In this document: piece after piece, positions 2,529-50,380 of the stretch
Layout of the letters: every line of letters begins with the position of its first letter
Position numbering within the stretch: the stretch's first letter is position 1
Assembly (NCBI RefSeq): GCF_963668385.1
Contig: NZ_OY764327.1
Coordinates: 5,712,724 to 5,776,723, forward strand
DNA length: 64,000 nucleotides
Direction of reading: 5' to 3'
From: an uncultured Carboxylicivirga sp.
Lineage (GTDB): Bacteria; Bacteroidota; Bacteroidia; Bacteroidales; Marinilabiliaceae
Position numbers and translations under genes: made by a program
Notes under the pieces: model-generated
The model's input: the letters and a program-made list of their open reading frames with translations, nothing else
What the model was told of the DNA's origin: nothing
The model's database searches: none

Positions 2529-3881
2529 TTAATCGATATAGGGGTTAGAATTAGTTTCTTCTTTAGGCACATTCCAAATATATAATGGTGAATTGGGTGA
2601 TAGCACATTGCCATTGCTTCGTTGTACCACAATATTTAATTGACTCGACAGGCGCTTTAAATCATAAAAGCGTAATCCTTCGGTAAATAATTCTCTTCGG
2701 CGTTCTTGCTGTATCTGTGTTAAATCAGGTGCAGTCTGTAACAAACTGGCTCCTCGTTTCTGGCGCAATATATTGATCACACGCAATGCTTCCGAAGGAT
2801 TGGATTCTAATACCGATTCGGCATAAATTAAATATTGCTCGGCCAAACGGAAGTGTTTATAATTCAGATTTCGGTCAACTACACTATTGCGTTCGTTTAC
2901 CGGCACAATATATTTGTATGGCATCTGAGAAGAATTGATATAATTCTCATCCTTACGAATATCGCCTTCTTCGAAACTATCAATAAAATATTGACTTAAT
3001 CGCACACTATTATTCTCATATATCTCATGATAATCAATCAAATCGGCATCATCGGTATCGCTTAAATCATGGGTCATAAATATGACTTCCTTATTCAACG
3101 AACCAAACTGATCTTCCCAAAGCATCCAATAATTTTCTTTATCTAATAACTCAGTATTAATAAAATGACCCGAAGCCTCTCTGGCCGTTTCGTAATCTGA
3201 AATAAACAATGCTACTCTTGCTTGTAAAGCCCATATAGCTTTCGTACCAAATTCGTAATTCGATGAAGCACTATAATCACTTTCTGATAATAAACTTTCA
3301 GCCTGATTTAAATCGGAATAAATTTGCCCATATACTTTCTCTAAAGATGATTTTGGCAAATATTCCAATGTAAGGTGCAGTTTAAGAGGAATACCATCCT
3401 CATTACCATTACTACCATCATAGCGTGCTGCATACACTTGAACGGTATTAAATAAACTCCAGGCTCTTACTCCCAATGCCTGTGCGTATATCTGGTCCAT
3501 TTCATCTTGCTCTTCCTGAGTAGAAACCGGCACAGTGGTATAATTATCGATTAATACATTAGCTCGTGAAATTATCTGATACTGATAAGTCCATATATAT
3601 GGCTGAGGTTGTGTTTTATAGTCCCAATTATAAATAAGATAATTTGATTCGGCATAACCAGGAATTACACTTTCAAAATCATCGGATGCAAAGTCGGTTG
3701 TTTGCATATTCATTACTGATGATGTAAGGGTAAGATACAAGTTATTTAAAGCCATTTGATATGACTCAACATCATTAAAGGCTTGTTCTTGCGATACTAC
3801 ATCTTCAGGGGTAATATCAAGCAACGAACAAGACGAAAACAATCCTAAGCCAATCATTAAAATTGATATATTTCGTATCAT
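2529..3881 (-). CDS. RagB/SusD family nutrient-binding lipoprotein
   Basis: 450 residues from the ATG at 3881. I prefer this start to the ATG at 3905, which lies inside the SusC gene, because 3881 gives a clean lipoprotein signal (SILMIGLGLFSSC) and sits 10 bases after the SusC stop. Hallmarks of SusD are the N-terminal DITPEDVVSQEQAF, the helical repeat region, the late motif YRLAEQYLIYAESVL-like stretch, and the C-terminal NILRQKRGA, ERRRELFTEGLRFYDLKR and final YIWNVPKEE-N-NPYID. SusD proteins form the lid over a SusC channel and bind substrate at the cell surface. With an M16 peptidase in the operon, oligopeptides are a more likely substrate than glycans; this is inference. Confidence 0.93.
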   Translation of the reverse strand: MIRNISILMIGLGLFSSCSLLDITPEDVVSQEQAFNDVESYQMALNNLYLTLTSSVMNMQTTDFASDDFESVIPGYAESNYLIYNWDYKTQPQPYIWTYQYQIISRANVLIDNYTTVPVSTQEEQDEMDQIYAQALGVRAWSLFNTVQVYAARYDGSNGNEDGIPLKLHLTLEYLPKSSLEKVYGQIYSDLNQAESLLSESDYSASSNYEFGTKAIWALQARVALFISDYETAREASGHFINTELLDKENYWMLWEDQFGSLNKEVIFMTHDLSDTDDADLIDYHEIYENNSVRLSQYFIDSFEEGDIRKDENYINSSQMPYKYIVPVNERNSVVDRNLNYKHFRLAEQYLIYAESVLESNPSEALRVINILRQKRGASLLQTAPDLTQIQQERRRELFTEGLRFYDLKRLSSQLNIVVQRSNGNVLSPNSPLYIWNVPKEETNSNPYID

Positions 3882-3891
3882 AGTTATTTTA

Positions 3892-6800
3892 TTAAAAAGT
3901 AACATCTATTCCCAGGGTAAATGATTTCGGCAAAGGTTGACCTACCCCGGTAATTTCAGGATCGATACCTTCGTACCCGGTTATAGTCAATAGATTATTT
4001 GCCTGAGCTGTTATCTTTAATGATTCAACACCTTTTAGCTTCAGCTGCTCACCTAAATTGTATCTGACAATAATATTTTTCCATCGTATGTAGGATGCAT
4101 TTTCGACAAAAAGTGAATTAACGTTTGTGTCAGAAAAAAACTTCGGATAAGGCAATGATTTTTCGTCGCCAGGCTTTAACCAGATATCATCCATAAATCC
4201 GGCATATGGCACCTCACCATTTTTAACATTCCTAATCATGCGAGCTTTTAAGCTATTGTAGTTTACTCCTCCCCATGCGTATGTAAATAAGGTTGACACC
4301 TCAATATTCTGATAATTAAAAACATTAGTAAAACCTCCTGTTACCGGATGTGTATATGTACCAAAACCGGTCATCTGAGGAGCAACACCTCCTGCTACCA
4401 GGTTGTTGTTTTCATCATAATACAGCGGCATACCATTAACAGGATTAACACCAGCCCAATGTTTAACATAGGCTGAGTTGATAGCTTCGCCTACACTAAA
4501 ATATCCTTCATCCCCTACCTTAATTTCATCTTGCAAATACAAATCAGTTATTTCATTTTGGTTATAAGCAAAATTCAGGCTTGATGTCCAACGAAAATAA
4601 GCTGTACGAATAGGTACTGCACTCAATTGCAACTCAACTCCTTGATTTTGTAACTGTCCGATATTACGTAGTAACGATGAATATCCGTTTGATGCCGGTA
4701 TATCAACTGTTGCCAGCAAGTCATCGGTTTGTTTGATGTATCCTTCAATAGTACCATAGATTCGATGTTTGAGCAAACCAAAATCGAGGGCTACACTCCA
4801 TTGTTTGGCACGTTCGAATTTGAGATCTGAATTCCAGAATTCTACCAGATTGATAACTCGATTACCCATGTAGGTATTGCTATTAGTGAAATTATAGAAT
4901 GGTAATCCTAAAGTTTGACGAATACCTCCTGAATTGTAATTTACACCATATGAAGCTCTCAATTTAAACTGATCAACCAAAGTGATATTTGAAAACCATT
5001 CTTCTTTTTGAATATTCCATGCTGCACCAACACCCCAAGCTGGAACAAAACGTTTATCTTCAGGAAGAATTGATGATCCATCGTATCGGAACGAACCTGT
5101 TAAGTTGTATTTTGAGTTAAAATTATAATTACCTCTTGTATAAAATCCCAACAAAGCATCGCGATATTTAGATGTTGCAATAGTAGCCTGAGGATTAGCT
5201 CCTATTTCAGGATCGACTTTTTCAGATATACCAATACTATTAAAGCCAAAGCCCCAGCTTTTGGTATGGATATATTCCGATCCGCCACTTAAGGCAAAAG
5301 AATGATCACCAAGATGCTTATTGTAATCAAAGCTAAGGTTAACTCTAGAAATTAGCGATTTGGACTCATTTTTAGCAAAAGCACCTTCTCCTTTAATTTT
5401 GCCAGCGGCTTCAACAATACTATTCGCAAGAGTAACGCTATTGTTTTCGCCATCACTATAAGTAATACCACCTTTTGCATTTAGGTTTAAACCTTCGAAT
5501 ACCGTCCAGTTTAAATTGGTATTTAAATCCAACCTCCAGGTAGTTAACTCCGAATATCGATTATTCAATTCATCAAATGGATCTTCGAAATACTGTCCAT
5601 TAATAGATACAGGATCGCGTGCAATGAAATCAGTAGTAGCTACTGTTTCGTATGGTTGCAAAGTATAAATTAAACTTGCTGGCGAAGTGGCAGATTTGGA
5701 GCTTTTACTACGCCCGATAGAAGAGTCGAAACCTATGGCCACGTCATCGTTTAAATTATGATCAAGATTGAAACGTGTAGTAAAACGATTTGCCCACGAT
5801 CTTTCGTATCCCCCTTCTTCATCATAGTAACTCGTTGATAAATAATAACGAGTATCATCAACCCCACCAGACATGCTTAACTGTAAATCTTTTACCTGAG
5901 CAATACGAGATAGTTCTTTTAACCAATTGGTATTAACCGATTCTAATTCGCGATATCGCTTATTTTTGATGTATATCTCCTCTTCAGAGTCGGTTGATGT
6001 TGGAGAATAGATGTATCCTAACCCAGATACAATTTCTAATTCTCGCTCTAAAGCCAGCTTCTCAGCAGAGCCCATCAAACTGATTCCGCCTAATCCTGAA
6101 ATTGGTTTTACAGTATGTTGATATCGCACATTGTATTGGGTTTTTCCAACAATACCTCTTTTAGTCTTAATTTCGATTACACCATTTGCACCCCTTGTAC
6201 CGTATTCAACCGTTGATAATCCATCTTTCAACACTCGAATATCCACAATATCATCAGGATTAATGGTATTAAAAACATCTGATGAAATAGGTGATCCATT
6301 CAAAATATATAAAGGTTCGTTGGCACGGTTAGCTGATTCTAACTCAGCATCATCTTTTGCTCGAATTCCTAAGGAATTATTCCCCCTGATACGGATGGTT
6401 GATTTCTCGCCAGGCTCACCAGTTGACTGAATGGCCAAACCAGCCACTTGCCCTTGTAATAACTGATCGAACGATGCAGCAGGTGTTCCGGCTGAAAAAA
6501 CTTTAGTATCGATTTTTCCAACCGAACCAGTAATGGTTCTTACATCTTTTTGATTTTCACCAAATACAACAACTGCATCTAAATCATGCACCATTGGTTC
6601 TAATTGAACATCAATTATTGCTCTGTCCCCCACGGTAATTTCCTGAAGTTCATATCCCAAATACGAAAACTGCAAAACACTTTCGGGTACTAAACCTCCA
6701 AAGTGATAATGGCCTTCATAATCGGTTATCACACCTGATGTGGTATTTTTCAGAAAAATACTAACGCCAATTAAGCTCTCTCCTGTTGAAGCATCAGTAA

Positions 6801-6894
6801 CAATTCCCTCTATAGTTCGCCCCACTTGTCCACTAATAGAGATGCTACTAAAACCAACAATTAAGAACAATAATATTTGCTTCATTAATTTCAT
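3892..6894 (-). CDS. SusC/RagA family TonB-linked outer-membrane transporter
   Basis: About 1000 residues. The frame extends upstream to a TTG at 6912, but the ATG at 6894 (MKLMKQ) gives a normal signal peptide and is the better start. Domain order: signal peptide (1-23), carboxypeptidase-like regulatory domain (about 24-105, GIVTDASTGESLIGVSI), plug (about 115-245, with LLQGQVAGLAIQS, IRIRGNNSLG, PLYILNGSPI, ILKDGLSTVEYGTRGANGVIEI), then a 22-strand-type barrel ending in the aromatic FTLGIDVTF. All three expected parts are present, in contrast to the receptor at 18807. It imports substrate captured by the downstream SusD, with energy from TonB. Confidence 0.95.
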   Translation of the reverse strand: MKLMKQILLFLIVGFSSISISGQVGRTIEGIVTDASTGESLIGVSIFLKNTTSGVITDYEGHYHFGGLVPESVLQFSYLGYELQEITVGDRAIIDVQLEPMVHDLDAVVVFGENQKDVRTITGSVGKIDTKVFSAGTPAASFDQLLQGQVAGLAIQSTGEPGEKSTIRIRGNNSLGIRAKDDAELESANRANEPLYILNGSPISSDVFNTINPDDIVDIRVLKDGLSTVEYGTRGANGVIEIKTKRGIVGKTQYNVRYQHTVKPISGLGGISLMGSAEKLALERELEIVSGLGYIYSPTSTDSEEEIYIKNKRYRELESVNTNWLKELSRIAQVKDLQLSMSGGVDDTRYYLSTSYYDEEGGYERSWANRFTTRFNLDHNLNDDVAIGFDSSIGRSKSSKSATSPASLIYTLQPYETVATTDFIARDPVSINGQYFEDPFDELNNRYSELTTWRLDLNTNLNWTVFEGLNLNAKGGITYSDGENNSVTLANSIVEAAGKIKGEGAFAKNESKSLISRVNLSFDYNKHLGDHSFALSGGSEYIHTKSWGFGFNSIGISEKVDPEIGANPQATIATSKYRDALLGFYTRGNYNFNSKYNLTGSFRYDGSSILPEDKRFVPAWGVGAAWNIQKEEWFSNITLVDQFKLRASYGVNYNSGGIRQTLGLPFYNFTNSNTYMGNRVINLVEFWNSDLKFERAKQWSVALDFGLLKHRIYGTIEGYIKQTDDLLATVDIPASNGYSSLLRNIGQLQNQGVELQLSAVPIRTAYFRWTSSLNFAYNQNEITDLYLQDEIKVGDEGYFSVGEAINSAYVKHWAGVNPVNGMPLYYDENNNLVAGGVAPQMTGFGTYTHPVTGGFTNVFNYQNIEVSTLFTYAWGGVNYNSLKARMIRNVKNGEVPYAGFMDDIWLKPGDEKSLPYPKFFSDTNVNSLFVENASYIRWKNIIVRYNLGEQLKLKGVESLKITAQANNLLTITGYEGIDPEITGVGQPLPKSFTLGIDVTF

Positions 6895-6930
6895 TCTCTT
6901 ATTCTTCACCAATTACAATACTATCTAATT

Positions 6931-9738
6931 CTATAACTCCTCTGGACTTAGAATAAACTCAAGATGCTTTGATTTATCTAAGTATTTTCGAGCCAGTTTG
7001 CTTAATTGCTTTGCTGTAACATTGTTAATCTGCTCCTCATAGCTCTCAAGATCTTTTTCATCTTCCCCCCTTGTCCACTGATCTTCCAAAACTCTTCGCC
7101 AATAACCATTTGTATTTAACGAACCTTTCCTGTTTTTAAGCCATGCTTTCTTTACCTTGTCAAGATTAGTTTCCTCTATTTGAATTTTCATCTTATCGAT
7201 TTCGCCAAAAGTTGCTTGCAATAATGTATCAAGGTTAGCTGGAGAACACGTAAAATATATATCCATTCGATAATGCATGTACGGACGCTGCAGTACATTT
7301 GATGAGGCAAATGGAGAATAAACACCTCCAATCTCTTCGCGCAATTTTTGATTTAATCGTATTGTCAAAATATCGCTCAACAGCCCCATCTCAATTCTTG
7401 CCCTTTGTGTATCTTTATATTTCCCCGTAAAACGAATTAAGGCTTTTGCTTTTTCAACACGATTTTTAGGAAAATCATACCGATGTTCGCCTTTAGGAGG
7501 ACGTATACCGTAATCCTTATATTTAGTTACAATTTTATTACCAGGTAAACTTCCTAAATACTGGGTTAGTAGAGGCTTAATTGAATCCACATCAAAACTA
7601 CCCACAATAAAAAAGCGTGATCCGTTGGCTGAACTATAACGCGATGTATAAAAATCAAAGGCTTTATCAAGATCAATCTCATCCAATTCTTCGGGTGTTA
7701 ATAAGGTTGCTGTACGCGGGCTGTTCTGCATCATTACCTTATTAACTCCATCGGTAAAATACGAATCGGGATTATTTAAAGCATTTTTATTGTACTCTTT
7801 TTTGTTTTCTATGAAGTGATGGAATTGATCAACATCTTTACGCGGCTGTGTGTAGGTTAAATATGTTAACTGCATCAATGTCTCAAAATCAGTTTTTGAT
7901 GAAAAACCAGTTACTCCTTCAGTATATCTGTGAATATAAGGTGCAACATAAACCTGTTTGCCAGAATTAATCCGTTCGAGTTCCAAAGCACTAAAATTGG
8001 CTAATCCTCCTTGCGAAACCAATAATGCAGCCATCGAGGCATTATTAAATTGATTGGTTGAAGCCAATGAATAACCACCTTCTCGCATTGACGAGAATCT
8101 GATTTCATCGCTTTTAAAATTAGTTGGTTTTAAGGCAACGCTTACTCCGTTATCAAACTCTATGGTAGTAATTCCCATCTCCTCCGAGTACGTCTCTTGT
8201 TTAATTATTCCTGCTTCAGGAATAGTATCCATCAATGTGTCTGAAACCTCAAATTCTTTATATGGTTCAAGTTTTTCCTCTTTACTATTATTGATAACAC
8301 TTAATAACTCCTCTTGTGTTGGTGTGATACTATTTTCGGGTGCTGTAACAATAATGATTTGATTCTTCTTCGAAAAATCGATATACTCATTTACTAAATT
8401 CTGAATATCAGTTAAAGAGATTTCGTCCAACACTTGTTCAATAAATTGTGCTTTAAATGATAAGCTGGAATTTTCTTCGCCATAAATAATATGGTTTGTA
8501 ATAGCCTCCATAATATCACCCGATTGCAATTTGTCTTCTTCACTAGCCATGCGTTTATAATCGTTACCAAGAATTTCCTTCTTACGATCTAACTCCGCTT
8601 GTGTAAAACCATATTCTTTAATTCGAAGCAATTCGCGCAACAAGCCCTGAGTACCTTCAATAATCTGATCGCTCTTGGTTGTTACAATCGACATGTAACG
8701 ATCAGTATTTCCTGCTGCACTAGTAGCATACGATTGTGCATACATATAAGGAGCCTCCTTTTGCTGTGCTACATCTGTCAGCCTTTGATTCACCATATAT
8801 GTATAAATAATATTCTCCACACTTCGCTTAAGATCCTTCAGTGTTTTTTCCTCTCGATGGGGAAACTTATGAATGAGCTTTACCGATGTACTGGTTATTT
8901 CTTTATCCTTTATAATTGCAATTTTCGTTGAATCCTGAAGAGGAACGGTGTAGTATTGACGCTCTGGTGCATTCTTGGGATTTTGTATCGATCCGAATAT
9001 ATTATTAATACGTTGCTCAATATCTGCCTGATCAAAGTCGCCTACAACAACTAAGCTGGCTAAATTAGGACGATACCACGATCGATAAAACTTTCGAAGT
9101 TCTTCGTCGTTTCCTTTTTTAGTCACCACATCCATTAAACCAATAGGCATGCGCTCCAAGTAACGCGAATTATTATAAAGCAATGGATACATTGCCTCTT
9201 TTAAGCGCTGATTTAAACCAATTGTGGTACGCCATTCTTCTAAAATAATATTACGCTCATTATCTATCGCTTGTGTACTAAGCGTTAATCCAGAAAGGAT
9301 ATCGCCAAAAAATAAAAACGCATTGTCTAAAGTTTCTTTCTTGGCATTAGGTAGAGGTAACATATAAACCGTTTCGTCATATCCGGTATAAGCATTTACA
9401 TCTCCACCAAATTCAACTCCAATACTTTGTAAATAATCAATTAAGGTATATTCCGGAAAATGCTTGCTACCATTAAAAACCATGTGCTCCAGAAAATGAG
9501 CAAAACCACGTTGCTCTTCTGTTTCAAGAATAGAACCCGCTTTTATAATCATTCGCATTTGCACTTGGTTCTCAGGCAATGAATTTTTCTGTAAATAGCA
9601 TGTAAAACCATTATCCAAAGTTTTCTTAACTACTTTGGGATTCATTGGTATTGAACGATCGTAATTTACCTGTGCTTTAGTAAATATACAGAAGTGCCCA
9701 ACTAACAAAAGACTAATAAGTCGAAATGTAATATTCAT
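6931..9738 (-). CDS. M16 family zinc metallopeptidase, exported
   Basis: 935 residues from the ATG at 9738; the GTG at 9762 would add only eight residues before the signal peptide. The inverted zinc motif HxxEH is at residues 81-85 (HFLEH), followed about 75 residues later by the third ligand region ERNIILEEW. Two tandem M16 halves are present, the second lacking the zinc motif, as in pitrilysin and mitochondrial processing peptidase relatives. The product is probably periplasmic or surface-exposed and cleaves short peptides. It is the first gene of the operon, 36 bases before SusC, with a good promoter at 9790-9820. Its position suggests trimming of peptides taken up by SusCD. Confidence 0.93.
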   Translation of the reverse strand: MNITFRLISLLLVGHFCIFTKAQVNYDRSIPMNPKVVKKTLDNGFTCYLQKNSLPENQVQMRMIIKAGSILETEEQRGFAHFLEHMVFNGSKHFPEYTLIDYLQSIGVEFGGDVNAYTGYDETVYMLPLPNAKKETLDNAFLFFGDILSGLTLSTQAIDNERNIILEEWRTTIGLNQRLKEAMYPLLYNNSRYLERMPIGLMDVVTKKGNDEELRKFYRSWYRPNLASLVVVGDFDQADIEQRINNIFGSIQNPKNAPERQYYTVPLQDSTKIAIIKDKEITSTSVKLIHKFPHREEKTLKDLKRSVENIIYTYMVNQRLTDVAQQKEAPYMYAQSYATSAAGNTDRYMSIVTTKSDQIIEGTQGLLRELLRIKEYGFTQAELDRKKEILGNDYKRMASEEDKLQSGDIMEAITNHIIYGEENSSLSFKAQFIEQVLDEISLTDIQNLVNEYIDFSKKNQIIIVTAPENSITPTQEELLSVINNSKEEKLEPYKEFEVSDTLMDTIPEAGIIKQETYSEEMGITTIEFDNGVSVALKPTNFKSDEIRFSSMREGGYSLASTNQFNNASMAALLVSQGGLANFSALELERINSGKQVYVAPYIHRYTEGVTGFSSKTDFETLMQLTYLTYTQPRKDVDQFHHFIENKKEYNKNALNNPDSYFTDGVNKVMMQNSPRTATLLTPEELDEIDLDKAFDFYTSRYSSANGSRFFIVGSFDVDSIKPLLTQYLGSLPGNKIVTKYKDYGIRPPKGEHRYDFPKNRVEKAKALIRFTGKYKDTQRARIEMGLLSDILTIRLNQKLREEIGGVYSPFASSNVLQRPYMHYRMDIYFTCSPANLDTLLQATFGEIDKMKIQIEETNLDKVKKAWLKNRKGSLNTNGYWRRVLEDQWTRGEDEKDLESYEEQINNVTAKQLSKLARKYLDKSKHLEFILSPEEL

Positions 9739-9789
9739 GAACTGCAACAATTTGTAAAGCACAAGATTAGTTGCTTTTAGATGGTTTTA

Positions 9790-12331: not shown

Positions 12332-13675
12332 CTATTTATTGGACCTCCAAAGCTTTATTAATTCCTTGAAGAATTCGAAATTAGAGTAGAAGTGATTATG
12401 CGCATAGCCAGCCAGGCAATTTTTATAAAGTAAACCACATTGCCAGTCAGTCAGTTTTTCTGTTTTACTAAGCTGATAGGTTTTAATATAGTTACAATGG
12501 TTTTCATCCTCAATTAAATCGGAGTGATGAAACTCGTGACAACGTGTTGAAATTCCATTATATTCAAGTTGGGCATAACCAAAGCGTTGTAAACGTTTAG
12601 TCATTTGTACATCGGTATTATAGATGCCTGTCATCGGAAATTCCTCTCCTTCGAGACTAATAATTTTTTGGGTCAAATACATTAATCCACCACACTCAGC
12701 ATAAACTGGTAAACCTTTTTGAACCTGCTCATTAACATGTTGTAAAAGCGGAGAATTAGCAGATAACTGCGTTGCAAAAACTTCAGGATATCCACCACCT
12801 ATATACAAACAATTACAATTATTTGGTAAGCATCTATCAGATAACGGACTAAAATAATGAAGTGTAGCGCCTAGCTCCTGAAGTAGTTCCAGGTTATCGC
12901 GATAATAAAATCGAAAAGCTTTATCGTAGGCAACCCCAATATGCAAATCCGATAAATCAATATCCGGTAATTGTAAAGTAGCTGACTTAGTTGGTTCCAA
13001 TTCCGAAATCTCAAGCAAAGCATTTACATCAATGGTATCAGCCAGATGCTGGGTCAATTGTTGCACTTTAGCTTGTAAATCCTCCACTTCTTCGGCCTGT
13101 ACCAAACCTAAATGCCTACTTTCGAGCGAAAAATCCTTATTAAAAGGCACATACCCCACACACTTTACACCACATTCTTTTTCGATGATGCCTTTTAAAA
13201 AATTATAATACTCTTTACTCGAACAGTGATTGAGAATTACCCCTTTTACACTCGAATTACTTTTATAGTTGACAAAACCTTTTACAATGGCTCCTACCGA
13301 CTGATAAAGTCCTTTACAATTTACCACCAAAACAACCGGCAGATTCAATTGCTGACTTAACTCATGGGTACTTCCTTGTGATTCCTCTCCTTTACCATCG
13401 TACATACCCATTACTCCTTCTATCACAGCAATATCTTTACTTATGCAATGCTTTGAAAACAGATATTGAATAGCCTCGGAGGGCAACATATATGTATCAA
13501 GATTGTACGATGGTGTATCGAGTATTTTTTGATGAAATAATGGATCGATATAATCCGGACCAGTCTTAAATGGAGCCACTTGCAAGCCTTTACTTTTCAG
13601 CAACGACATTAATCCTATTGACACAGTGGTTTTTCCACATCCGCTATTTGTTCCAGCTAAAACAAAGCCCTTCAT
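12332..13675 (-). CDS. cobB: Cobyrinate a,c-diamide synthase
   Basis: 447 residues, close to CbiA/CobB family length. The N-terminal ATPase domain has the P-loop GTNSGCGKTT (8-17) and GPDYIDP, VIEGVMGMYDG. The C-terminal class I amidotransferase-like domain has GGGYPEVF, the nucleophile Cys328 in YAECGGLMYL and a C-terminal HEFHHS motif. The enzyme amidates cobyrinate at the a and c side chains using glutamine and ATP. It lies alone here, without other corrin genes, but directly downstream of a cobalamin riboswitch, which fits a B12 synthesis role (the riboswitch would shut it off when B12 is abundant). cbiA is the equivalent name for the anaerobic pathway. Confidence 0.93.
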   Translation of the reverse strand: MKGFVLAGTNSGCGKTTVSIGLMSLLKSKGLQVAPFKTGPDYIDPLFHQKILDTPSYNLDTYMLPSEAIQYLFSKHCISKDIAVIEGVMGMYDGKGEESQGSTHELSQQLNLPVVLVVNCKGLYQSVGAIVKGFVNYKSNSSVKGVILNHCSSKEYYNFLKGIIEKECGVKCVGYVPFNKDFSLESRHLGLVQAEEVEDLQAKVQQLTQHLADTIDVNALLEISELEPTKSATLQLPDIDLSDLHIGVAYDKAFRFYYRDNLELLQELGATLHYFSPLSDRCLPNNCNCLYIGGGYPEVFATQLSANSPLLQHVNEQVQKGLPVYAECGGLMYLTQKIISLEGEEFPMTGIYNTDVQMTKRLQRFGYAQLEYNGISTRCHEFHHSDLIEDENHCNYIKTYQLSKTEKLTDWQCGLLYKNCLAGYAHNHFYSNFEFFKELIKLWRSNK

Positions 13676-13789: not shown

Positions 13790-13969
13790 CCTTAATCCCG
13801 AAAGCTATTCTTGTTCAGGCAGGTCTTCCGGCTCATCTTATTATTGAAGTCTTCCCAACTACAAATGCAATCAGTGACTATGGTATTTCAATAATTGAAC
13901 AGACTTACGGCTGCGGGTACAGCTCCGGATTTTTCAAATCTATTGAAGCACCGGATTCCCATATTAAGG
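13790..13969 (-). ncRNA. Cobalamin (B12) riboswitch
   Basis: Read on the minus strand the order of conserved blocks is that of the cobalamin riboswitch: GGGAATCCGGTGC, then AAATCCGGAGCTGTACCCGC followed by AGCC, a B12-box variant AGTCACTG, GTTGGGAAGAC, and GCCGGAAGACCTGCCTG near the 3' end. Closing arms CCTTAAT (13969-13963) and ATTAAGG (13796-13790) pair over seven bases and set the limits given. It precedes cobB by 115 bases on the same strand. An 84-codon open frame on the opposite strand here is not a gene. Confidence 0.93.
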
Positions 13970-14076
13970 TTTCCTCTGAAAGAGAAAATCCACCAAAACG
14001 CCCCGAAAGTAATAAAATAATCAAGAATGATGCGAAATAAAACATTAAGACCCTATGGGACATTTGAAATAATGAT

Positions 14077-14117
14077 AATAATCCGCGAAGCCAGATAAGA
14101 CGACTTCGCGGATTATT
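14077..14117 (-). terminator. Terminator of the barrel/A2M operon
   Basis: A 14-bp perfect stem (AATAATCCGCGAAG with its complement) around a 13-base loop starts 4 bases after the stop of the alpha-2-macroglobulin-like gene. The T-tract is short, but position and strength make a terminator the natural reading. Confidence 0.8.
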
Positions 14118-14121
14118 CAAA

Positions 14122-17100
14122 TTACGGATTGGTTATTTTAATTTCTTCACCTTTCTGCCAGTCTTTGTACTCTTTGGTGTAATATAAATAAGCACAACTT
14201 GCCGGTGCTGTATACATACCTGACACTTCTGCTTTTAAATCAAGATTGATTGTTTTTATAGCTGAAGATGCCATTTCGCGATAATACAACACCAGGTAAT
14301 TCTGATAAATTTCGTAATAATCAAACACATGCTCCTCCTGCAGCTTTTTCAGTTGCCATGGCTGAACTGATAAGCCAGATGGTATACCAATCATTGCCAA
14401 TGTCATTGGTAAACCCGATTGGGTTTTGTTAGTCAACTGAACCGACATACGAACAAGATCATTCTTCTTACATTCCACTTTCATCAAATTTGTTTTTAAC
14501 TGCACTTTACATTTATCGGATGAAACCGGCAAAGCTTGCATCCATTTTGCATTAGCCGTAAACGACAACGGATTTCTCAAACCTTTAAACTCTAATTGAA
14601 ATGTTTGAACTCCTGATGACAAGTACTGATCAAGGCTATCCAAGACAATTAATTTATCATCAGCACTTATCTGACGAGTCAATACATCTTTATCATTAAT
14701 TTTAAGAACAAGGCTTCCATTTTCAGGCATCTTATTTACAATGCCAGCATATTGAGTAATAGCTTTCAACGATAGCACTGTTGCCTGAGTTGAGCCAAAA
14801 CCTCCATAACTTCGGGCTCCCAAAACATAATCTATTAAAGTAAGAAGTTCGGTAAAATGCTCTTCACCGTTTTTCATCAAAGCCATGGCCGATAATGCCG
14901 CTACTTCAACCTGAAGTGATTTACCCCATGACCGCACTATTGAATGATCAGCTTTTAAATTATCTGCTCCACCTTTTTGTACTTTCCTGATAATATAATC
15001 TATAAGTTGTTTTGCCTTTACTGTATCCTTTTGGTTCAAACATGCATTCGCCATTAATGCAAGTCGGTAAGCATCTTTACTCCTCAAAGCTTCATCATAG
15101 GCTTTATTAAATTCAAGTTCGTAGTCATCGGATGGTAAATCCACTTCCGAAAATGCATAAACTAAATAAGCATTGGTTACTTCCTCCGAAGCACCTGAAA
15201 AACCGTACTTCCCTTTGTTTATATTAAAACCGCCTTTACCATTTTTTCTACTTAGTAACCAATCAACTGTTCGTTTTAACATTGCGTCGTCCACGCCTTT
15301 ATAAACCTGTTTCATATCGTAAAACTCCATCAAGCCAAAAGCTGTTAATCCCTCGTGAGGAGGAGTATTACCAAACCATTCAAAACCATTTTTCTTTGTT
15401 TCGTAACCAGCCAGTTTTTTGTAACCAGCATCGATATACGACAGTGTTTTTTCACGTAATTCAGAATCAACATTTTCTGTTTCTTCCAGGTATTTTAGAA
15501 TTAACACGTTTGGATAAGTTGATGCACTAGCCTGCTCGAAACAACCATGTGGCTGACGAATAACCGACTCTATTCCATCCATAACTTCGGCGAGCACATT
15601 ATTGTAAACAGAGACACTCATATGGGCACTTTGATGTACTGATGAAGACAAATCAAAACTAAATTCGGATTGGATAGCTCTGGCCGAATAAGACATCTCG
15701 GCAGGAAATCCTTTACTCACAATATTCGTCTCGGCGACAAATTCGGTTTGATATTGCTTATCTCCAAAACTGAAAGACAAACTGTCTTTTCCTGTTTCTG
15801 ATCCTACTCTAAACTTCAACCTGACTTCTTTATATGAACCAGAATCAACATTTACTACAACTGGAGGTTGATTGATGAAAGTCCATGATTGAGGGTGCGA
15901 AATCTTCAAATCACCTTCAATAGTTTTATCTGTATTATTGGTAATCAACACAGCTACGTCCAATTCATCCTCAAAAGTAAGGTAAGGCGGTACTTTAGCC
16001 TCCATTTGTAAAGGCTTACGGGTTGAATAAAATCCTTCAACTCGGCCAACCAAACCATTATTACCAATTCCTTCCACTATGGTTCTGAAAGTAGTTACCT
16101 CATCAGAATTGAAAAACTCAACTTCAGCCTTTCCTTTATGATCTGTTGCAACCGTTGGATTCCAATAAACTGTCTCGCGCTTATCAAATCCTTTTACATC
16201 TCCACTTTGGTATCGAGGAACATAAAACTCTTTCACTTTATCAAATTGATATCCACCCGAAACATAACGCTGAGCAAGCTTTCGAGAGTACTTTCTTTGC
16301 CTGTTATAATTACTATAATTGCCTTTCTTGGTATTAATAAAAATAACTCCATTTGCACCTCGGCACCCGTAAATAGCAGTTGCAGAAGCATTTTTTAATA
16401 CTTCAATATTCTGAATTTCGCTGGCATTTATTTGATTCACATCTGCAACCGCAACTCCATCAACAATATATAAAGGATTATTATTTGCCGATATAGATGA
16501 CGTACCTCTTATCATTACTGACGAATTAGAACCAGGTGTACCCGAACTATTAATAACCTGTACGCCCGCCACCTGTCCTTGCAAGCTATAATTTACATCA
16601 TTATTTACACTTTGTATATCCTCAGAAATAACATATGCTACGGCCCCTGTTACACTTGATTTTCGTTGGGTACCATAACCAACTGTTACTACTTCTTCTA
16701 ATGCAACTGCATCATCCTCCATCGACCATGAAGCGGACATGCGATTCTGGCGAGATGGATCCAAAACAACTTCTGATTCTTCAAATATCTCCTCATCCAT
16801 TGCAATCGAATTGTTGACATCACGACTCTCAGCTATCAATGGATCTACTCTCGCTGTTCCAAATATAGTTGGTGTATTGGTTGTTCTCTGAACTTTATTA
16901 AATGATGATTGACTAATATTAATGTTAACATACTTGTTTTTACGATCCAACGACTTAGCATAAATCTGTAAATAGTTATAATTATCAAGGCCCGACACGG
17001 CAAATCGTCCTCCTTCGTTTGTTGTGATTTTTGAGAATTTTTTGTGCTCATTATCCACCACAATAACTTTTGATTTTACTCCCTGCCCATACGAATTCAC

Positions 17101-18807
17101 AACTTTGCCCGAAACCAAATCGAATCGTTCAGGCTCCATAACTTTGTTCTTTTGAAGTTCGAGTATATCATTCCAAACAAACCTTCGCCAGCCTTGGGTT
17201 AGCAACAGATAATCCATCGCTTCAGGTGCTTTCTTTTTATCAGGGTTAAAGTAAAATGAAGGCTCATAAATATCTCCATTTACTTCGGACGATAGCAATA
17301 AATACGACAGAATGTTATCCTGTTTATCGTCAGCAAAAGTCACTATCTTATCATCCACAACCGCCAATGAAAAATTACCTTCAACCGGTTGTCCGTTCTT
17401 ATCCTTTACCACAAGTGACATTTTTACTTTTTCACGAGGGGCATAAATTGTTTTATCAGTGGTAATGCCAATAGTGAGTTTATTTTCAGGAAATACATAA
17501 AACAAGCGTTCGACCAGCGGCCTTTCATAATCATCAAATACGGTAATTTGCGCCACTCCAGATAAGTCCTCATTAGCAAGCTTTATATTTTCAGTGATCT
17601 TACCCTTAGGCAGTATTCTGCTTTTAGTATATAATATTTCGCCCCTAGCCTGTACTACTATGTGAACTTTTTCCTCAACGTTAGAAAATATTGAAAATAC
17701 ATATTCATCACCCTCTCTTTTATCCAGATGAAGCACAAAACCTTCTGGTTTGGGTTTGGGCAAGAAAAAAGGTTTGCGAATTCCTGCTGGCTTCAATACT
17801 ATTGCCCGGTAAGTTTCATTCGAATCAGGAACAAAATCGAATGCTCCCATTCCCTGATGAAAACTTTTAAATGTATTGATCAGTTTATCTTTACTATCTC
17901 TAATTTCTCCTTCAACATCAGCAGGTTTCCCAAATTCATTCAGCGCTTTAAATGCCATTCGGCAAGGTAACATTTCAATAGCATCACCACCCTCGGGCAT
18001 AAATTGTAAATCGATAACATTTAACACAATAGGAATTGCTCGTGATATGGATTCGTTCCTTCCCTTATATCCGAAAACTACATTTAAAACCCCATCTGAC
18101 GAATTTAGTTTATCAGGAAGTACAAACGTAATCTTTGCTTTCCCATCATCATCAGTATTAGTATTATCCTTTTTAATCTCTGTTCCTTTTATTTGAACAG
18201 AAAAATTCAATTGCTGATTAGCGACCGACTGATTCTGTAAATCACGTATGCTAATATTGGCAATAACAGTATCACCAGCTCCGTATGCTTCTTTTTCAAA
18301 ATCAAGAGTAGATAATAAATTTGGTTTGATGATGCTTTGTATCTGTAACTTCTTTTCAAAAACTAACTTATTTCCAAAGTTTTGTATCCAACGAGTGTAA
18401 GCTTTCAACTTATATAATCCACCAGAAGCTGTTTCTGCTAATTTAAAATGAGCCTTACTCTGTCCGTTTTTTACCATAAACTTCTGACGTTGCGAAACAG
18501 ATCCTTTGGGATCAATTAATTCGACATAAAGAACCGTACTGATATTTGAAGGCTGATAAGTGATGCCATCCATTAAATATCCCGAAATCCAAATATCATC
18601 TCCCGGTTTATAAAAGGTTTTATCGGTATGTAGATAAGCTTTTTCAACCGGATAATACAGATTGTATTCCACCAATCGTTTTTTCAAAAAACCAACAAAT
18701 AACTCATCAACATTGGTAAACGAAAGTATTGTGATTAAAAGCGGTAACATAAAAAGTAAGGGTAAATATCTTTTTGTTTTCATAATATACAGGTTTAGGT
18801 TTTTCAT
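14122..18807 (-). CDS. Alpha-2-macroglobulin-like protein with embedded SusC-type plug domain
   Basis: 1561 residues; the ATG at 18807 overlaps the previous stop by one base (TAATG), and a second ATG at 18783 also precedes the signal/anchor segment (about 10-30). Order: MG2-like domain (HTDKTFYKPGDDIWISGY, 60-77), further MG domains with TDKTIYAPREKVKM, YLLLTQGWRRF, a carboxypeptidase-like insert, a complete TonB plug (about 700-830: VVTVGYGTQRK, LQGQVAGVQV, MIRGTSS, PLYIVDGVAV, IEVLKNASATAIYGCRGANG), the conserved A2M segment (about 880, YWNPTVATDHKG), and a thioester domain with GCFEQ, Cys1089. The thioester motif CxEQ is intact, so covalent trapping of proteases is possible. A C-terminal MG-type domain ends the protein. 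No barrel follows the plug. The upstream gene encodes a SusC-type barrel that lacks a plug; the two probably work together. Confidence 0.93.
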   Translation of the reverse strand: MKNLNLYIMKTKRYLPLLFMLPLLITILSFTNVDELFVGFLKKRLVEYNLYYPVEKAYLHTDKTFYKPGDDIWISGYLMDGITYQPSNISTVLYVELIDPKGSVSQRQKFMVKNGQSKAHFKLAETASGGLYKLKAYTRWIQNFGNKLVFEKKLQIQSIIKPNLLSTLDFEKEAYGAGDTVIANISIRDLQNQSVANQQLNFSVQIKGTEIKKDNTNTDDDGKAKITFVLPDKLNSSDGVLNVVFGYKGRNESISRAIPIVLNVIDLQFMPEGGDAIEMLPCRMAFKALNEFGKPADVEGEIRDSKDKLINTFKSFHQGMGAFDFVPDSNETYRAIVLKPAGIRKPFFLPKPKPEGFVLHLDKREGDEYVFSIFSNVEEKVHIVVQARGEILYTKSRILPKGKITENIKLANEDLSGVAQITVFDDYERPLVERLFYVFPENKLTIGITTDKTIYAPREKVKMSLVVKDKNGQPVEGNFSLAVVDDKIVTFADDKQDNILSYLLLSSEVNGDIYEPSFYFNPDKKKAPEAMDYLLLTQGWRRFVWNDILELQKNKVMEPERFDLVSGKVVNSYGQGVKSKVIVVDNEHKKFSKITTNEGGRFAVSGLDNYNYLQIYAKSLDRKNKYVNINISQSSFNKVQRTTNTPTIFGTARVDPLIAESRDVNNSIAMDEEIFEESEVVLDPSRQNRMSASWSMEDDAVALEEVVTVGYGTQRKSSVTGAVAYVISEDIQSVNNDVNYSLQGQVAGVQVINSSGTPGSNSSVMIRGTSSISANNNPLYIVDGVAVADVNQINASEIQNIEVLKNASATAIYGCRGANGVIFINTKKGNYSNYNRQRKYSRKLAQRYVSGGYQFDKVKEFYVPRYQSGDVKGFDKRETVYWNPTVATDHKGKAEVEFFNSDEVTTFRTIVEGIGNNGLVGRVEGFYSTRKPLQMEAKVPPYLTFEDELDVAVLITNNTDKTIEGDLKISHPQSWTFINQPPVVVNVDSGSYKEVRLKFRVGSETGKDSLSFSFGDKQYQTEFVAETNIVSKGFPAEMSYSARAIQSEFSFDLSSSVHQSAHMSVSVYNNVLAEVMDGIESVIRQPHGCFEQASASTYPNVLILKYLEETENVDSELREKTLSYIDAGYKKLAGYETKKNGFEWFGNTPPHEGLTAFGLMEFYDMKQVYKGVDDAMLKRTVDWLLSRKNGKGGFNINKGKYGFSGASEEVTNAYLVYAFSEVDLPSDDYELEFNKAYDEALRSKDAYRLALMANACLNQKDTVKAKQLIDYIIRKVQKGGADNLKADHSIVRSWGKSLQVEVAALSAMALMKNGEEHFTELLTLIDYVLGARSYGGFGSTQATVLSLKAITQYAGIVNKMPENGSLVLKINDKDVLTRQISADDKLIVLDSLDQYLSSGVQTFQLEFKGLRNPLSFTANAKWMQALPVSSDKCKVQLKTNLMKVECKKNDLVRMSVQLTNKTQSGLPMTLAMIGIPSGLSVQPWQLKKLQEEHVFDYYEIYQNYLVLYYREMASSAIKTINLDLKAEVSGMYTAPASCAYLYYTKEYKDWQKGEEIKITNP

Positions 18808-21677
18808 TAAAATGTTACTTGTAGCGTTAATCCATATCGTCTGATCTGAGGACTATTAAAATAATCGAGTCCCATGGTATTACTGTGTCCCCAAAGTGTA
18901 TTGGAGCCCAGATTTCCTTTGTATTGAGATATGGTAAACAGATTGTTAGCAACGGCAGTTAGGGATAGTTTCTGGAGACCCCAACGTCTGACAGTATTTA
19001 CATTGAAATTGTAGGTAAAAAACAACTCTTTCAAAACCAGTCGCGAACCATCCTGAATATAATCTTCAGCCACGCCTTCAACTCCGTACCTAACCCAACG
19101 GTTATCGTTAACAAATCCGTCATCAGGCGCAAAGGATACCAGTGTATTGTTTATTGATCCATCCTGCTTTACACCGTCAAAAATATAGTTACGAGTGAGT
19201 CGCTCATCTGCTGTTTTTTGCGAAACTCCGTAATAATCCAAAGCAGCCTGTGTTCCGTTCCAAAGGTCGCCACCCAACACTGCATCCAGCGTAAATCCGA
19301 ATTGAATCCCTCTTACGGAAAAAGTATTAGTAAAACCAGCTAAAAAATCAGGATTAGGATCACCCAAAACTGCAGGAGAATTATCCACCAACGGAAAGCC
19401 ATCATCTCCTATTACATTTTGCCCTTCAGAGTTTCTCAACCACATGCTTCCAGTTATAACTCCGGGGCTATAATCCTTAATAAAAGCTGTATTTACATCA
19501 GCAAAACCTGCAACCGGAACAGCCTGCTCAAAATTTGAATTCGATACTTTTAAATGGATCTGAGCCAACGTTAGATTTGCATTCCACTTGAAAGAATGAT
19601 TCAATAAACGGGCTGACAAAGTTTCTTCCCACCCTTTTATTTTAATATCTCCCAAATTTTCGAAAGTCAGTTCATCAGAATCTAAAACAGGAAATATACA
19701 GTTATTGCGCTGGTTCCAGTAAAACGAGGTTGATGACTGAAGAGCTCCATTCAAAAAACTTGCTTCAATACTAAAATCAAGTTTCGAAACAATTTCAGGC
19801 TTAATATTCTTGGCAACACCTATCTCCTGATCTTCGAAATAAGAATTAAAATCAGACACATTGTATTTTAACGAATTATTCAATCCTACATGATAATCAA
19901 ATACATACTCATTTATTTGTGTCACATAATCCAGCTTCAGCTTGAAGCTCTGAAATACATCTTGTGTATCCCAATAAAATGTTCGATCGAGCCAACTAAA
20001 CGGGGAAAAACTAATTCCAAAATTCGGACGATAATAAACTTGACCGCTCGTTGAAGATGTGTAAAGATTCATACCAGCTTTTATATGAACGATATCATCA
20101 TAATATCCCGAATAGTGAACTTCCGGACTGGCTGTAAGAATATTTCGAGTCTGATTAATTTTTTCCGAAATTGGATCATTTAGGATTAGTTCTCTGCTAT
20201 AGTCATAAAACTCTCCTCTAACAGGCATGCTAAATCGGAATTTATAACCAATTAAATAATTCTCGATATAAGCACTTGCAAAATAGTTAGTCTGTGCTTC
20301 GTCTCGAAAATTACTTACTCCACCTTCATTACCTACTGTTCCTATAGGAAAATTCAATACTCTTTTATGATTATAATATTCGCCCGAAAAGTCAGCATTA
20401 ATATGGCCACGCGACCAATATCTTGTATAATCAAACTTATAAAGAAATGATTGTTGATTATTTCTATCAATACCTTTCTGAACAAATAAATAAGGATTAT
20501 CTAAATTTCCGGGTGATGCACTTCTTATGGATCCATCCGGATGGTAAATGACGGACTGATTGCTCTGTGCATCTTTCGCTGACAACCCAAAACTGTTATC
20601 AAATGAAACTGGAGTGAGATAAGCAGCTGATATAATTCTAGACTTCATAATTCCGTCCCGAAAATTATCTTTTGAATTAAAATAGCTCAAATTAGCCTTA
20701 AAATAATCGTTTAAATCCAACTTTACATTGAAGCGATGACTTTGAGTTTCCTCTCCCGGAATTATTCCTGAACTTAATAAATAACGATAACCAACATCCA
20801 AATGGGCCGATCCTAAAGTATGATAAGTTGTAAGATTGTATGAATTAATAAAACCTGTTTGGAAAACATCTGCAGGATCATACGCATTTGCCGCCATTCC
20901 ATTACCATTTGCTTTTGGCACTAATGAACCGTTTATGTCATTTGAATTAGATATACCATCAAATTCGAGATTGTCCAGAGGAGGCCCCCAGGAAAATATT
21001 TCTCCAGTTGAAGGCCCTTGATAACTTAACTTACCATCCAAAGGCCTCCCTTGTGTATATTTTGATTGAAGTTCGGGTAAACGTGCAGCTTTTTCAAAAG
21101 CAAAATTGGTTTTTAATACAATATCGCCCAATTGGTAAAATTGATCGTTCTGTAGGTTACCATACCTTCGTATCTGCCTCTCGAGCCGATTTGAATTTAT
21201 ATCCATAGCACTCATTGTTACCCGGTTATAACTTTCAATAATACTTGAATCAGCAATATAACTACGATAATACTTAAGCCTGTTAGCAACCTTAGCCGAA
21301 TCACTTAATGCTTTCTTTTCAGCATCTCGAACAAATCTGGTATCTTCTTTCACATGATTAAACGGAATGATCATTCTGCTCCCTACAGGATTCAAGCCAG
21401 TTCGGGTAACAACAGCTTTCTTGGTTTTCATGCCTATAAAACTGAAAACAAGCGTAGATCCCAATGGAGCTTCAATCTGATACTTCCCATCAATATCTGT
21501 TATTGTACCTTTGTTAGTTCCCTCAATAGTAACAGACAGTCCAGGTATGGCTTCGCCTTGGTTGTCAGTCATGGTTCCACTGACAAGAATATTTTCTTTT
21601 TGAGCATAGATAACGCTTATAGCTAAAAGCAAGTAAATAAGTAGAAATAAAATTCGTTTGATTTGGATAAGTTGCAT
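18807..21677 (-). CDS. SusC-like TonB barrel lacking the plug domain
   Basis: 956 residues. Signal peptide (1-25), carboxypeptidase-like domain (about 31-115, GTMTDNQGEAIPGLSVTIEG), then a linker of about 90 charged residues (VKEDTRFVRDAEKKALSDSA and onward) instead of a plug: the usual RGR, PLYVVDG and YGSRGANGV signatures are absent. The barrel region begins near residue 204 (LPELQSKYTQGRP, GEIFSWGP) with the sequence that normally follows the plug in SusC proteins, and ends in YGLTLQVTF. The missing plug is found in the next gene, within an alpha-2-macroglobulin-like protein, whose ATG overlaps this stop by one base. Either the plug is supplied in trans, or the barrel is permanently open or structural. 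No SusD gene is nearby. Confidence 0.9.
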   Translation of the reverse strand: MQLIQIKRILFLLIYLLLAISVIYAQKENILVSGTMTDNQGEAIPGLSVTIEGTNKGTITDIDGKYQIEAPLGSTLVFSFIGMKTKKAVVTRTGLNPVGSRMIIPFNHVKEDTRFVRDAEKKALSDSAKVANRLKYYRSYIADSSIIESYNRVTMSAMDINSNRLERQIRRYGNLQNDQFYQLGDIVLKTNFAFEKAARLPELQSKYTQGRPLDGKLSYQGPSTGEIFSWGPPLDNLEFDGISNSNDINGSLVPKANGNGMAANAYDPADVFQTGFINSYNLTTYHTLGSAHLDVGYRYLLSSGIIPGEETQSHRFNVKLDLNDYFKANLSYFNSKDNFRDGIMKSRIISAAYLTPVSFDNSFGLSAKDAQSNQSVIYHPDGSIRSASPGNLDNPYLFVQKGIDRNNQQSFLYKFDYTRYWSRGHINADFSGEYYNHKRVLNFPIGTVGNEGGVSNFRDEAQTNYFASAYIENYLIGYKFRFSMPVRGEFYDYSRELILNDPISEKINQTRNILTASPEVHYSGYYDDIVHIKAGMNLYTSSTSGQVYYRPNFGISFSPFSWLDRTFYWDTQDVFQSFKLKLDYVTQINEYVFDYHVGLNNSLKYNVSDFNSYFEDQEIGVAKNIKPEIVSKLDFSIEASFLNGALQSSTSFYWNQRNNCIFPVLDSDELTFENLGDIKIKGWEETLSARLLNHSFKWNANLTLAQIHLKVSNSNFEQAVPVAGFADVNTAFIKDYSPGVITGSMWLRNSEGQNVIGDDGFPLVDNSPAVLGDPNPDFLAGFTNTFSVRGIQFGFTLDAVLGGDLWNGTQAALDYYGVSQKTADERLTRNYIFDGVKQDGSINNTLVSFAPDDGFVNDNRWVRYGVEGVAEDYIQDGSRLVLKELFFTYNFNVNTVRRWGLQKLSLTAVANNLFTISQYKGNLGSNTLWGHSNTMGLDYFNSPQIRRYGLTLQVTF

Positions 21678-49436: not shown

Positions 49437-49862
49437 TTCTAGTCCTGCCTTTATATATTTAATTCAACGCTTGCTGTTTGTAGCATCTTTTAAGAAGACA
49501 CAAAATTATGAAGAGTACAATCAAGCGTTTCGGTTTTATGAACAAAACGGATGAAGAGGTGCGTAAATGTGTATTTTTCACGATTGAAATGTTAAGGATT
49601 TCTTAATACAGACGTAATCCTCTTTTTTAATTAGTTTCTTTAAAAACAATATATTAACCTTTGCATTGTAGTTTATTAAGCTTGGCAACAGCCAATACGC
49701 AGTATGGTAATCGAGTTAAAATAGCGCACTATTTATTGAAGAAATAACTGTTTGGTAGCAATGAGAAAAGAACGGGTATCATACCAAAGCCGGGCATTGG
49801 GGATTTTCGGTACAGTAATGGAAGAGCAGCGGATGGTTGCTTTAGTCAGTAGTGAGTAGTCA
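49437..49862. other. Non-coding lead-in to the repeat island
   Basis: About 425 bases without a convincing gene. Two 32-codon plus-strand frames (near 49508 and 49761) have no recognisable features and are probably chance. The last 30 bases contain short AGTCAGTAG/AGTGAGTAG copies that also flank the large repeats. Confidence 0.55.
49501..49508 (-). promoter_or_regulatory. Possible -7 element for the lipid operon
   Basis: TAATTTTG on the minus strand matches TAnnTTTG and lies 65-72 bases before the GTG start. A TTG is found 13 bases upstream rather than the usual 19, so only the -7 box is good. Confidence 0.3.
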
Positions 49863-50380
49863 GTAGCAAGACAATTAGGCATCAGGTAAATCGCTAACAG
49901 CTATAGGCTAACACCTCCAACACTGCCGCAGATAAAGCAGCGAATCAAACCAGTTTTGTGAGTGCGGCAGGCTTTTGATTCTTTAAATCCCCGGGTTCAT
50001 TCGCTCCTTCGACACACTTCGACAGGCTCAGTGCTGCTCAGGAAGCTCAATCACCCGGGGCTATTCATATTGAACTCCTCCGGAGTTTTTCCAACGTCTA
50101 CCAATACAAAAGTTCCAAAAAGCTATTGATTTCTGTAGGTTTCATAGCACCGATCTTAGAAACAAGAAGCAATGCCGCCTGAGCCTGTCGAAGGCGCACT
50201 ATGAACTTTTTTCGGACTCCGGACTTTGCACTTCGGACTGCCATAGTCAGTAGTCTGTAGCAAGACAATTAAGCATCATTTAAATCGCTAACAGCTAACA
50301 GCTAATAGCTATAGGCTTAACATTATGCACTCGTTTCCGTCCTCCGTCCTCCGTCTTCGGTCTCTTTTAACCAGTACAAA
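49863..50380. repeat. 518-base direct repeat, copy 1
   Basis: Starts at GTAGCAAGACAATTA. It is followed head-to-tail by copy 2 with near-identical sequence; bases about 49910-50190 are almost unchanged. Inside are several hairpins: CTGCCGCA/TGCGGCAG (49923-49930, 49963-49970), CCCCGGGT/ACCCGGGG (49989-49996, 50053-50060) and AACTCC/GGAGTT near 50075, a CTTCGACAGGCTCAG motif and its reverse complement near 50185, and short tandem words (CTAACAG/CTAATAG, CCGTCCT). No protein is supported. Confidence 0.9.

What the first reader, a model, noticed from the sequence alone, without database searches (positions are those of the whole stretch)
14122..18807. Alpha-2-macroglobulin-like protein carrying a complete SusC plug domain and an intact thioester
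Seen: one 1561-residue protein holds MG-type domains, a plug with all hallmark motifs (about 700-830) and GCFEQ with Cys1089. Known: A2M proteins trap proteases through the thioester; plugs belong inside TonB barrels. A plug inside a protease trap suggests the trap docks into, or is gated by, an outer-membrane barrel. I know of no characterised system of this kind.
Basis: partly seen in the sequence, partly recalled or inferred. Interest (0 to 1): 0.88.

Follow-up and report, generated by a model that had tools for sequence, protein, structure and literature searches.

The report
Outer-membrane pore plugged by protein trap
Many Bacteroidota carry a two-gene unit in which an outer-membrane pore has lost its built-in stopper and a matching stopper sits inside the neighbouring protease-trap-like protein, which suggests a gate that is closed by, and may fire, a covalent trap.

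Summary
On NCBI's SusC model the A2M covers positions 70-209 and the barrel 213-981: one SusC split over two proteins. It is no sequencing error. Of 80 loci found by the barrel, 78 have plugless barrel then A2M (plug visible in 77); two are plug and barrel in one chain behind VIT-VWA. Of A2Ms found by A2M searches, 20 of 20 with plug have the barrel next door, 0 of 4 without (Fisher p 9.4e-5). A Ton box motif is on the A2M, on 0 of 86 barrels; GCFEQ is in 86 of 86. The plug occupies the bait-region/anaphylatoxin position. Most likely the A2M plugs the barrel in trans, holding, perhaps triggering, a covalent trap beneath a TonB-linked pore. Docking and triggering are inferred; plug-barrel covariation was not seen. 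My literature searches found no description.

The parts
14122..18807 (-). A2M-type protein with embedded SusC plug, 1561 aa
   Evidence: ORF; Pfam and NCBIfam
18807..21677 (-). Plugless SusC-lineage barrel, 956 aa; its TAA shares one base with the ATG of the A2M
   Evidence: AF2 and Foldseek
16312..16701 (-). Plug domain in the A2M (residues 703-832)
   Evidence: PF07715, TIGR04056 70-209, TIGR04057; coordinates
16672..16701 (-). Ton box-like motif LEEVVTVGYG (residues 703-712)
   Evidence: Conserved in 86 aligned A2Ms; Bt1763 Ton box 82-88 DEVVVTG in PMC7782687 passages; TonB binding not tested
16702..16908 (-). Hypervariable linker before the plug (residues 634-702)
   Evidence: Low pLDDT in AF2, model residues 595-683; poorly conserved columns 640-700
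16174..16311 (-). Segment in the place of the alpha'NT region (residues 833-878)
   Evidence: Position and conservation against PMC9352918 section 6; function inferred
15907..16173 (-). A2M domain PF00207 (residues 879-967)
14749..15612 (-). Thioester domain TED (residues 1066-1353)
   Evidence: PF07678, E 2.9e-27
15532..15546 (-). Thioester motif GCFEQ (Cys1089)
   Evidence: present in 86 of 86 paired A2Ms
18397..18642 (-). MG2 domain (residues 56-137)
   Evidence: PF01835
21402..21584 (-). SusC-type N-terminal extension of the barrel protein (residues 32-92)
   Evidence: PF13715, E 6.2e-14
21138..21386 (-). Linker where a plug would be expected (residues 98-180)
   Evidence: No family hit; pLDDT under 50 at 108-118 and 125-179
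18810..21137 (-). Barrel domain (residues 181-956)
   Evidence: TIGR04056 positions 213-981 on residues 186-956; AF2
14077..14117 (-). Terminator-like hairpin, 17 pairs, just after the A2M stop
   Evidence: Consensus scan; overall the scan found 4 such sites against 5.3 expected, so this rests on stem length and place

Best explanation
The two genes encode one split TonB-dependent outer-membrane device. The upstream protein is a SusC-lineage barrel without a plug. The downstream protein is a thioester-bearing A2M whose bait-region/anaphylatoxin position is filled by a SusC plug with its own Ton box. The plug docks in the barrel from the periplasm, in trans, so that the A2M is both the seal and a covalent trap under the pore (docking inferred, about 0.75 likely). 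When a cargo or an intruding protein reaches the pore, TonB pulling on the A2M's Ton box, or a protease cutting the disordered linker, displaces the plug. The segment just after the plug, placed like the alpha'NT region whose retraction triggers animal A2M, would then be released, the thioester exposed and the incoming protein captured (triggering inferred, about 0.35 likely).
For: Complementary halves of one SusC model, 70-209 and 213-981. Gene pairing both ways: 78 of 80 barrel-found loci; 20 of 20 plug-bearing against 0 of 4 plugless A2Ms found by A2M searches. Spacing of 2-6 bases in 51 of 72 complete pairs. Barrel model matches SusC structures, with low confidence where the plug would be. 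Ton box conserved on the A2M, pattern on 0 of 86 barrels; GCFEQ in 86 of 86. Plug between upstream MG domains and PF00207, the place of bait region and ANA domain. In L130 and L143 the sister barrels keep plug and barrel in one chain. Lipobox-like pattern in 1 of 90 plug-A2Ms, so no lipid anchor is apparent.
Against: Plug-barrel mutual information is the lowest of seven A2M regions, and plug distances follow barrel distances less well (r 0.56) than any A2M window clear of the plug (0.756 or more). Short MG2 proteins with plug-like segments had no plugless barrel upstream in 0 of 7 cases with context. The window's protein departs from the R and F of the family's alpha'NT-like consensus. Fold confidence of the plug inside the A2M is moderate. 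No complex was modelled; no experiment exists.
Confidence: 0.5

Rival explanations
1. Tether only: the plug anchors a conventional protease-triggered A2M at the outer membrane. A protease that enters the periplasm cuts the disordered linker, which serves as the bait. TonB plays no part in triggering.
For: Hypervariable, low-confidence linker before the plug; no apparent lipid anchor; E. coli A2M is an anchored periplasmic protease trap (PMC4498604 passages).
Against: The Ton box motif is kept after the variable linker; a mere tether would not need it.
Confidence: 0.25
2. Import device: the pair takes up a protein or peptide; the A2M part is a periplasmic receiver that holds the imported cargo.
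For: SusC lineage; the peptide importer RagA is among the plug's best PDB matches; Ton box.
Against: No SusD-like or other recurrent third gene: the commonest neighbour families occur in at most 15 of 84 loci and look like housekeeping synteny.
Confidence: 0.13
3. Independent proteins: the barrel is an open pore or has another plug, and the A2M's plug serves elsewhere.
For: Lack of covariation; short MG2-plug proteins without a neighbouring barrel.
Against: Gene pairing in both directions and complementary domain content. An open SusC-size pore should be harmful (inference).
Confidence: 0.07
4. Export: the barrel releases or displays a protein, with the A2M as shuttle or gate.
For: A TonB-dependent transporter, Oar, is required for secretion of protease PopC (PMC6434023, title and start of abstract in listings).
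Against: No secreted protein gene recurs next door.
Confidence: 0.05

Closest known systems
SusC/RagA TonB-dependent transporters (TIGR04056; BT2264, Bt1763, RagA)
   Same: Barrel, N-terminal extension, plug and Ton box are all recognisable
   Different: Plug and Ton box sit on a different protein; each half scores below the family's cut-off of 368.25 bits (187.6 and 193.7); no SusD-like gene adjoins the barrel
Alpha-2-macroglobulin / complement C3-C5 family; E. coli ECAM
   Same: MG domains, PF00207, TED, thioester motif
   Different: A SusC plug fills the bait-region/ANA position; lipobox-like pattern in only 1 of 90, whereas ECAM is anchored in the inner membrane (PMC4498604 passages)
VIT-VWA-plug-barrel single chains (L130, L143)
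   Same: Sister barrels in the tree; plug behind another extracytoplasmic module
   Different: Plug and barrel in one chain; VIT-VWA instead of A2M
FhuA with plug and barrel expressed as separate parts (laboratory construct, recalled; not seen in any call)
   Same: Plug supplied in trans to an empty barrel
   Different: Artificial; here the split is natural and the plug is part of another protein

Membership tests
SusC/RagA transporter (as one protein) | Plug and barrel in one chain, whole-model score above cut-off | tested here: not met
   187.6 (A2M) and 193.7 bits (barrel) against 368.25; no plug in the barrel protein
SusC/RagA transporter (as one protein) | SusC-type barrel | tested here: met
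   TIGR04056 213-981; Foldseek to BT2261-2264 SusC chains, TM 0.65-0.68
SusC/RagA transporter (as one protein) | Ton box | tested here: inconclusive
   Motif conserved on the A2M, pattern in 59 of 86 A2Ms and 0 of 86 barrels; binding to TonB not testable here
SusC/RagA transporter (as one protein) | SusD lid gene nearby | tested here: not met
   No recurrent third gene in 84 loci, commonest family in 15; my SusD seed profile is narrow (one hit)
Alpha-2-macroglobulin | MG, PF00207 and TED domains | tested here: met
   Foldseek to C5, C3, ECAM and A2Ms
Alpha-2-macroglobulin | CXEQ thioester motif | tested here: met
   GCFEQ in 86 of 86; bond formation not testable here
Alpha-2-macroglobulin | Unstructured bait region between MG domains | tested here: inconclusive
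   A plug fills the position, but a disordered linker of about 69 residues precedes it
Alpha-2-macroglobulin | Protease-triggered covalent trapping | not testable with these tools
   Needs a bench assay

The most novel reading that the evidence does not exclude
A force-triggered covalent trap: a complement-like thioester protein whose activation domain is the plug of a separate outer-membrane pore, so that withdrawal of the plug by TonB, not proteolysis, arms the thioester and captures whatever enters. It would be a naturally split TonB-dependent transporter and an A2M-family protein under mechanical, proton-motive-force control.
Probability: 0.33. Interest if true: 0.95.

Novelty: categorically new. 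Interest (0 to 1): 0.87.

Why it matters
TonB-dependent transporters are treated as single chains whose plug belongs to its own barrel. A natural split, with the plug built into a complement/A2M-type protein at the very place that triggers its conformational change, would join two well-studied machines. It would make directly testable whether a whole plug leaves its barrel, whether A2M activation can be mechanical, and what a thioester protein does under an outer-membrane pore.

Tried and rejected
Joined genes or sequencing error: rejected, as the same order recurs in 90 distinct TED-bearing A2Ms with a plug hit.

Recent insertion of a SusC fragment: rejected for the window. Apart from itself, the best DNA matches to its plug in its own genome are 73% over 149 bases and 82% over 79 bases.

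Plug hidden in the barrel protein's linker: rejected. No plug hit in Pfam, the SusC model starts at 213 there, and AF2 gives low confidence for most of 98-180.

Plug-barrel coevolution: tried by mutual information on 86 pairs and by distance matrices; neither supports it. Among close relatives the plug often differs more than its flanks, for example L141/L108 (94% rest, 77% plug; DNA dip at the plug); L121/L115 shows the opposite. Conversion from another plug gene was looked for only with L141's plug as query: apart from itself, the best match in L141's own genome is 78% over about 76 bases, so no recent donor was seen there. One clade for all A2M plugs is not rejected (p-AU 0.647), though the free quick trees needed 6-7 changes between A2M and SusC labels.

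Alpha'NT motif in paralogs: the W-N-P pattern of plug-A2Ms was not found in 7 of 7 TED-bearing A2Ms without a full plug; whether they have another alpha'NT was not tested.

Third partner gene: none found in 84 loci.

Literature: ten searches of the PMC library, no preprints or most subscription papers held. Aimed at this combination: searches gave 0 papers; two searches gave one paper each, neither on this; one search gave 33 papers with at least 5 of 6 terms, of which the 15 listed all lacked the word macroglobulin (the other 18 were not seen). One search matched words such as 'susceptible' and is uninformative; two searches were for background. Papers were seen as passages (PMC9352918, also its section 6; PMC4498604; PMC11658791; PMC5413942; PMC7782687) or only in listings (the rest).

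Full report
What is there. The gene runs on the minus strand, 18807 to 14122, and encodes 1561 residues. Pfam and NCBIfam find MG2, plug, A2M and TED domains, and GCFEQ holds Cys1089. The plug part's best PDB sequence matches are RagA and SusC chains; those of the TED part are CD109 and A2M.

The gene directly upstream, 21677 to 18807, ends with a TAA whose last base is the A of the A2M's ATG. Its 956-residue product has the SusC N-terminal extension and the SusC barrel, but no plug. On the NCBI SusC model TIGR04056 (981 positions) the A2M covers 70-209 and this protein covers 213-981. AF2, run on an alignment of 73 sequences, gives a barrel (pLDDT 86.2, pTM 0.76) with pLDDT under 50 at 108-118 and 125-179, where the plug would be; Foldseek's best matches are SusC chains of BT2261-2264 (TM 0.65-0.68). 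A 17-pair terminator-like hairpin follows the A2M stop (a consensus match only), so the two genes look like one transcription unit.

How general it is. In the window's family 8 of 71 genomes, the window's included, carry the barrel at E 1e-60 or better. All 8 have the A2M with plug next door; in one (L065) the barrel frame has a stop inside. A scan of GTDB genome contigs with ten barrels found 216 relatives, of which the best 80 were kept. Of these 80, 78 have a plugless barrel followed on the same strand by the A2M; the plug is visible in 77, the exception L118 having a broken A2M at a contig end. In 51 of the 72 complete pairs the spacing is 2-6 bases. The record titles name Marinilabiliaceae, Flavobacteriaceae, Chitinophaga, Cytophagales, Dysgonomonas and others. 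The remaining two (L130, L143) are single chains: extension, VIT, VWA, plug, barrel.

The reverse test starts from the A2M (loci read). Plug-bearing A2Ms with upstream sequence: 20 of 20 have the barrel next door (window, L038, L039, L040, L158 and L159-L173; in L173 the barrel is cut by the contig end, so its lack of a plug is seen in 19). TED-bearing A2Ms without a plug and with at least 1.5 kb upstream: 0 of 4 (L044, L045, L046, L157). Fisher p = 9.4e-5. Several of these species also occur among the 80, so the two tests overlap. Left out for want of sequence: L009 and L041 (plug), L043 and L047 (no plug). L042 was also left out: it carries the extension and the first half of a plug (SusC model 2-137), and no barrel shows in its 594 upstream bases; it may be a relic or an independent insertion. 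Over all loci together, 86 of 87 plug-A2Ms with context have the barrel; the 87th, L099, is an A2M broken into two frames whose first piece abuts the barrel. The unit is uncommon: 5 of 395 genomes in an even phylum sample, the window's included, have the A2M C-terminal part at E 1e-40 (one of them, G398, has no plug), and 15 of 397 in the family of G491 have the A2M at E 1e-120.

Anatomy of the A2M. After a hypervariable linker (residues 634-702) comes a Ton box-like motif at 703-712, conserved at 97% (L703), 91% (E705, V706) and 79-81% (G710, Y711, G712) in 86 aligned sequences; as a pattern it was found in 59 of 86 A2Ms and 0 of 86 barrels. In Bt1763 the corresponding DEVVVTG is the Ton box, and its deletion or replacement gave growth defects on levan like those of a SusD deletion (PMC7782687, passages). 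GCFEQ is present in 86 of 86. The plug lies between upstream MG domains and PF00207; the bait-region domain PF07703 is recognised upstream of the plug in relatives L139 (above cut-off) and L138 (below it). That is the place of the bait region (residues 690-728 in human A2M) and of the ANA domain in complement (PMC9352918, passages and section 6). Between plug and PF00207 a conserved segment (FYxPxY, then R or K, F, R) takes the place of the alpha'NT region, in which R732 and F735 are the better conserved residues of the family; the window's own protein departs from that R and F. Section 6 supports alpha'NT retraction from a channel as the trigger of the conformational change. AF2 of residues 40-1085 (pLDDT 80.0, pTM 0.72) matches complement C5/C3 and A2Ms, ECAM included, in Foldseek; query-normalised TM scores in the 50 listed are low (0.13-0.44), as expected for a flexible multidomain chain, and the plug is only moderately confident. 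A lipobox-like pattern occurs in 1 of 90 plug-A2Ms; no signal-peptide predictor was run.

Origin. In a tree of barrels the 43 split barrels used (every second of 86) form one clade (SH-aLRT 97), next to the two VIT-VWA chains, and then to two plug-bearing SusC proteins of the window's own genome, L036 and L037 (only 9 SusC rows, and the program warns of long branches). This fits one loss of the plug from a SusC ancestor. A2M plugs cluster, and a single clade is not rejected.

Results against or unexplained. Plug-barrel mutual information is the lowest of seven A2M regions (28 pairs per 100,000 above z 4, against 132-231). Barrel distances correlate with the rest of the A2M at r 0.965 but with the plug at 0.56; windows clear of the plug give 0.756 or more. 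In close relatives the plug often differs more than its flanks, in DNA too, though not always. This might reflect exchange of plugs or selection on an exposed part; I could not decide. Short MG2 proteins without a TED also hold plug-like segments, often partial, and 0 of 7 with context had a plugless barrel upstream.

Mechanism. Both ends of a plug face the periplasm in known transporters (established knowledge), so an A2M in the periplasm could insert its plug into the barrel from below. The authors of PMC7782687 propose that TonB may remove a whole SusC plug from its barrel (passages), and TonB force can unfold part of a plug (PMC5413942, passages). If the plug is drawn out, the alpha'NT-like segment could be pulled too and the trap fired. 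Gene pairing, complementary domains, and conservation of Ton box motif and thioester motif are shown; docking, triggering, cellular location and cargo are inferred.

Novelty. My aimed searches of the PMC open library gave nothing on this combination (and the 15 listed papers). Each half belongs to a known lineage; the unit fits neither family whole, since the barrel lacks the plug that belongs to the one and the A2M carries a plug at the bait position of the other.

Noticed in passing
L143:5283-10241 (+), L130:5382-10361 (+): Single chains of about 1650 aa with SusC extension, VIT, VWA, plug and barrel: an inter-alpha-trypsin-inhibitor-like module built into a SusC, whose barrels are sisters of the split ones.
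   Followed up: partly
L049, L053, L054, L055, L056 (two), L176: Short MG2 proteins (about 810-900 aa, no TED) with a plug-like segment, often partial, in the same place and no plugless barrel upstream (0 of 7).
   Followed up: partly
L042:595-5076 (+): A TED-bearing A2M that holds the SusC extension plus the first half of a plug (TIGR04056 2-137) at the plug site.
   Followed up: partly
window 16312-16701 and homologous plugs: Among close relatives the plug often diverges more than its flanks, with a DNA dip at its borders in some pairs; cause unknown.
   Followed up: partly
window 13801-14012 (-): Cobalamin riboswitch (86.5 bits) between the A2M and the downstream gene 12332-13675, which by my reading resembles cobyrinate diamide synthase (not searched).
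   Followed up: no
window 49437-51457: About 2 kb without an ORF of 100 aa; a stretch near 49962-50129 recurs near 50480-50647 almost letter for letter in translation.
   Followed up: no
window 2529-9762 (-): An ordinary SusC gene (3892-6912, full TIGR04056 match) with a downstream gene that by my reading is SusD-like, and an M16 peptidase gene upstream (6931-9762).
   Followed up: no
L048:8826-12167 (+), window's own genome: An 1113-aa protein with an MG2 domain and no plug hit, in a locus with a GH28 and a DUF4450 gene.
   Followed up: no
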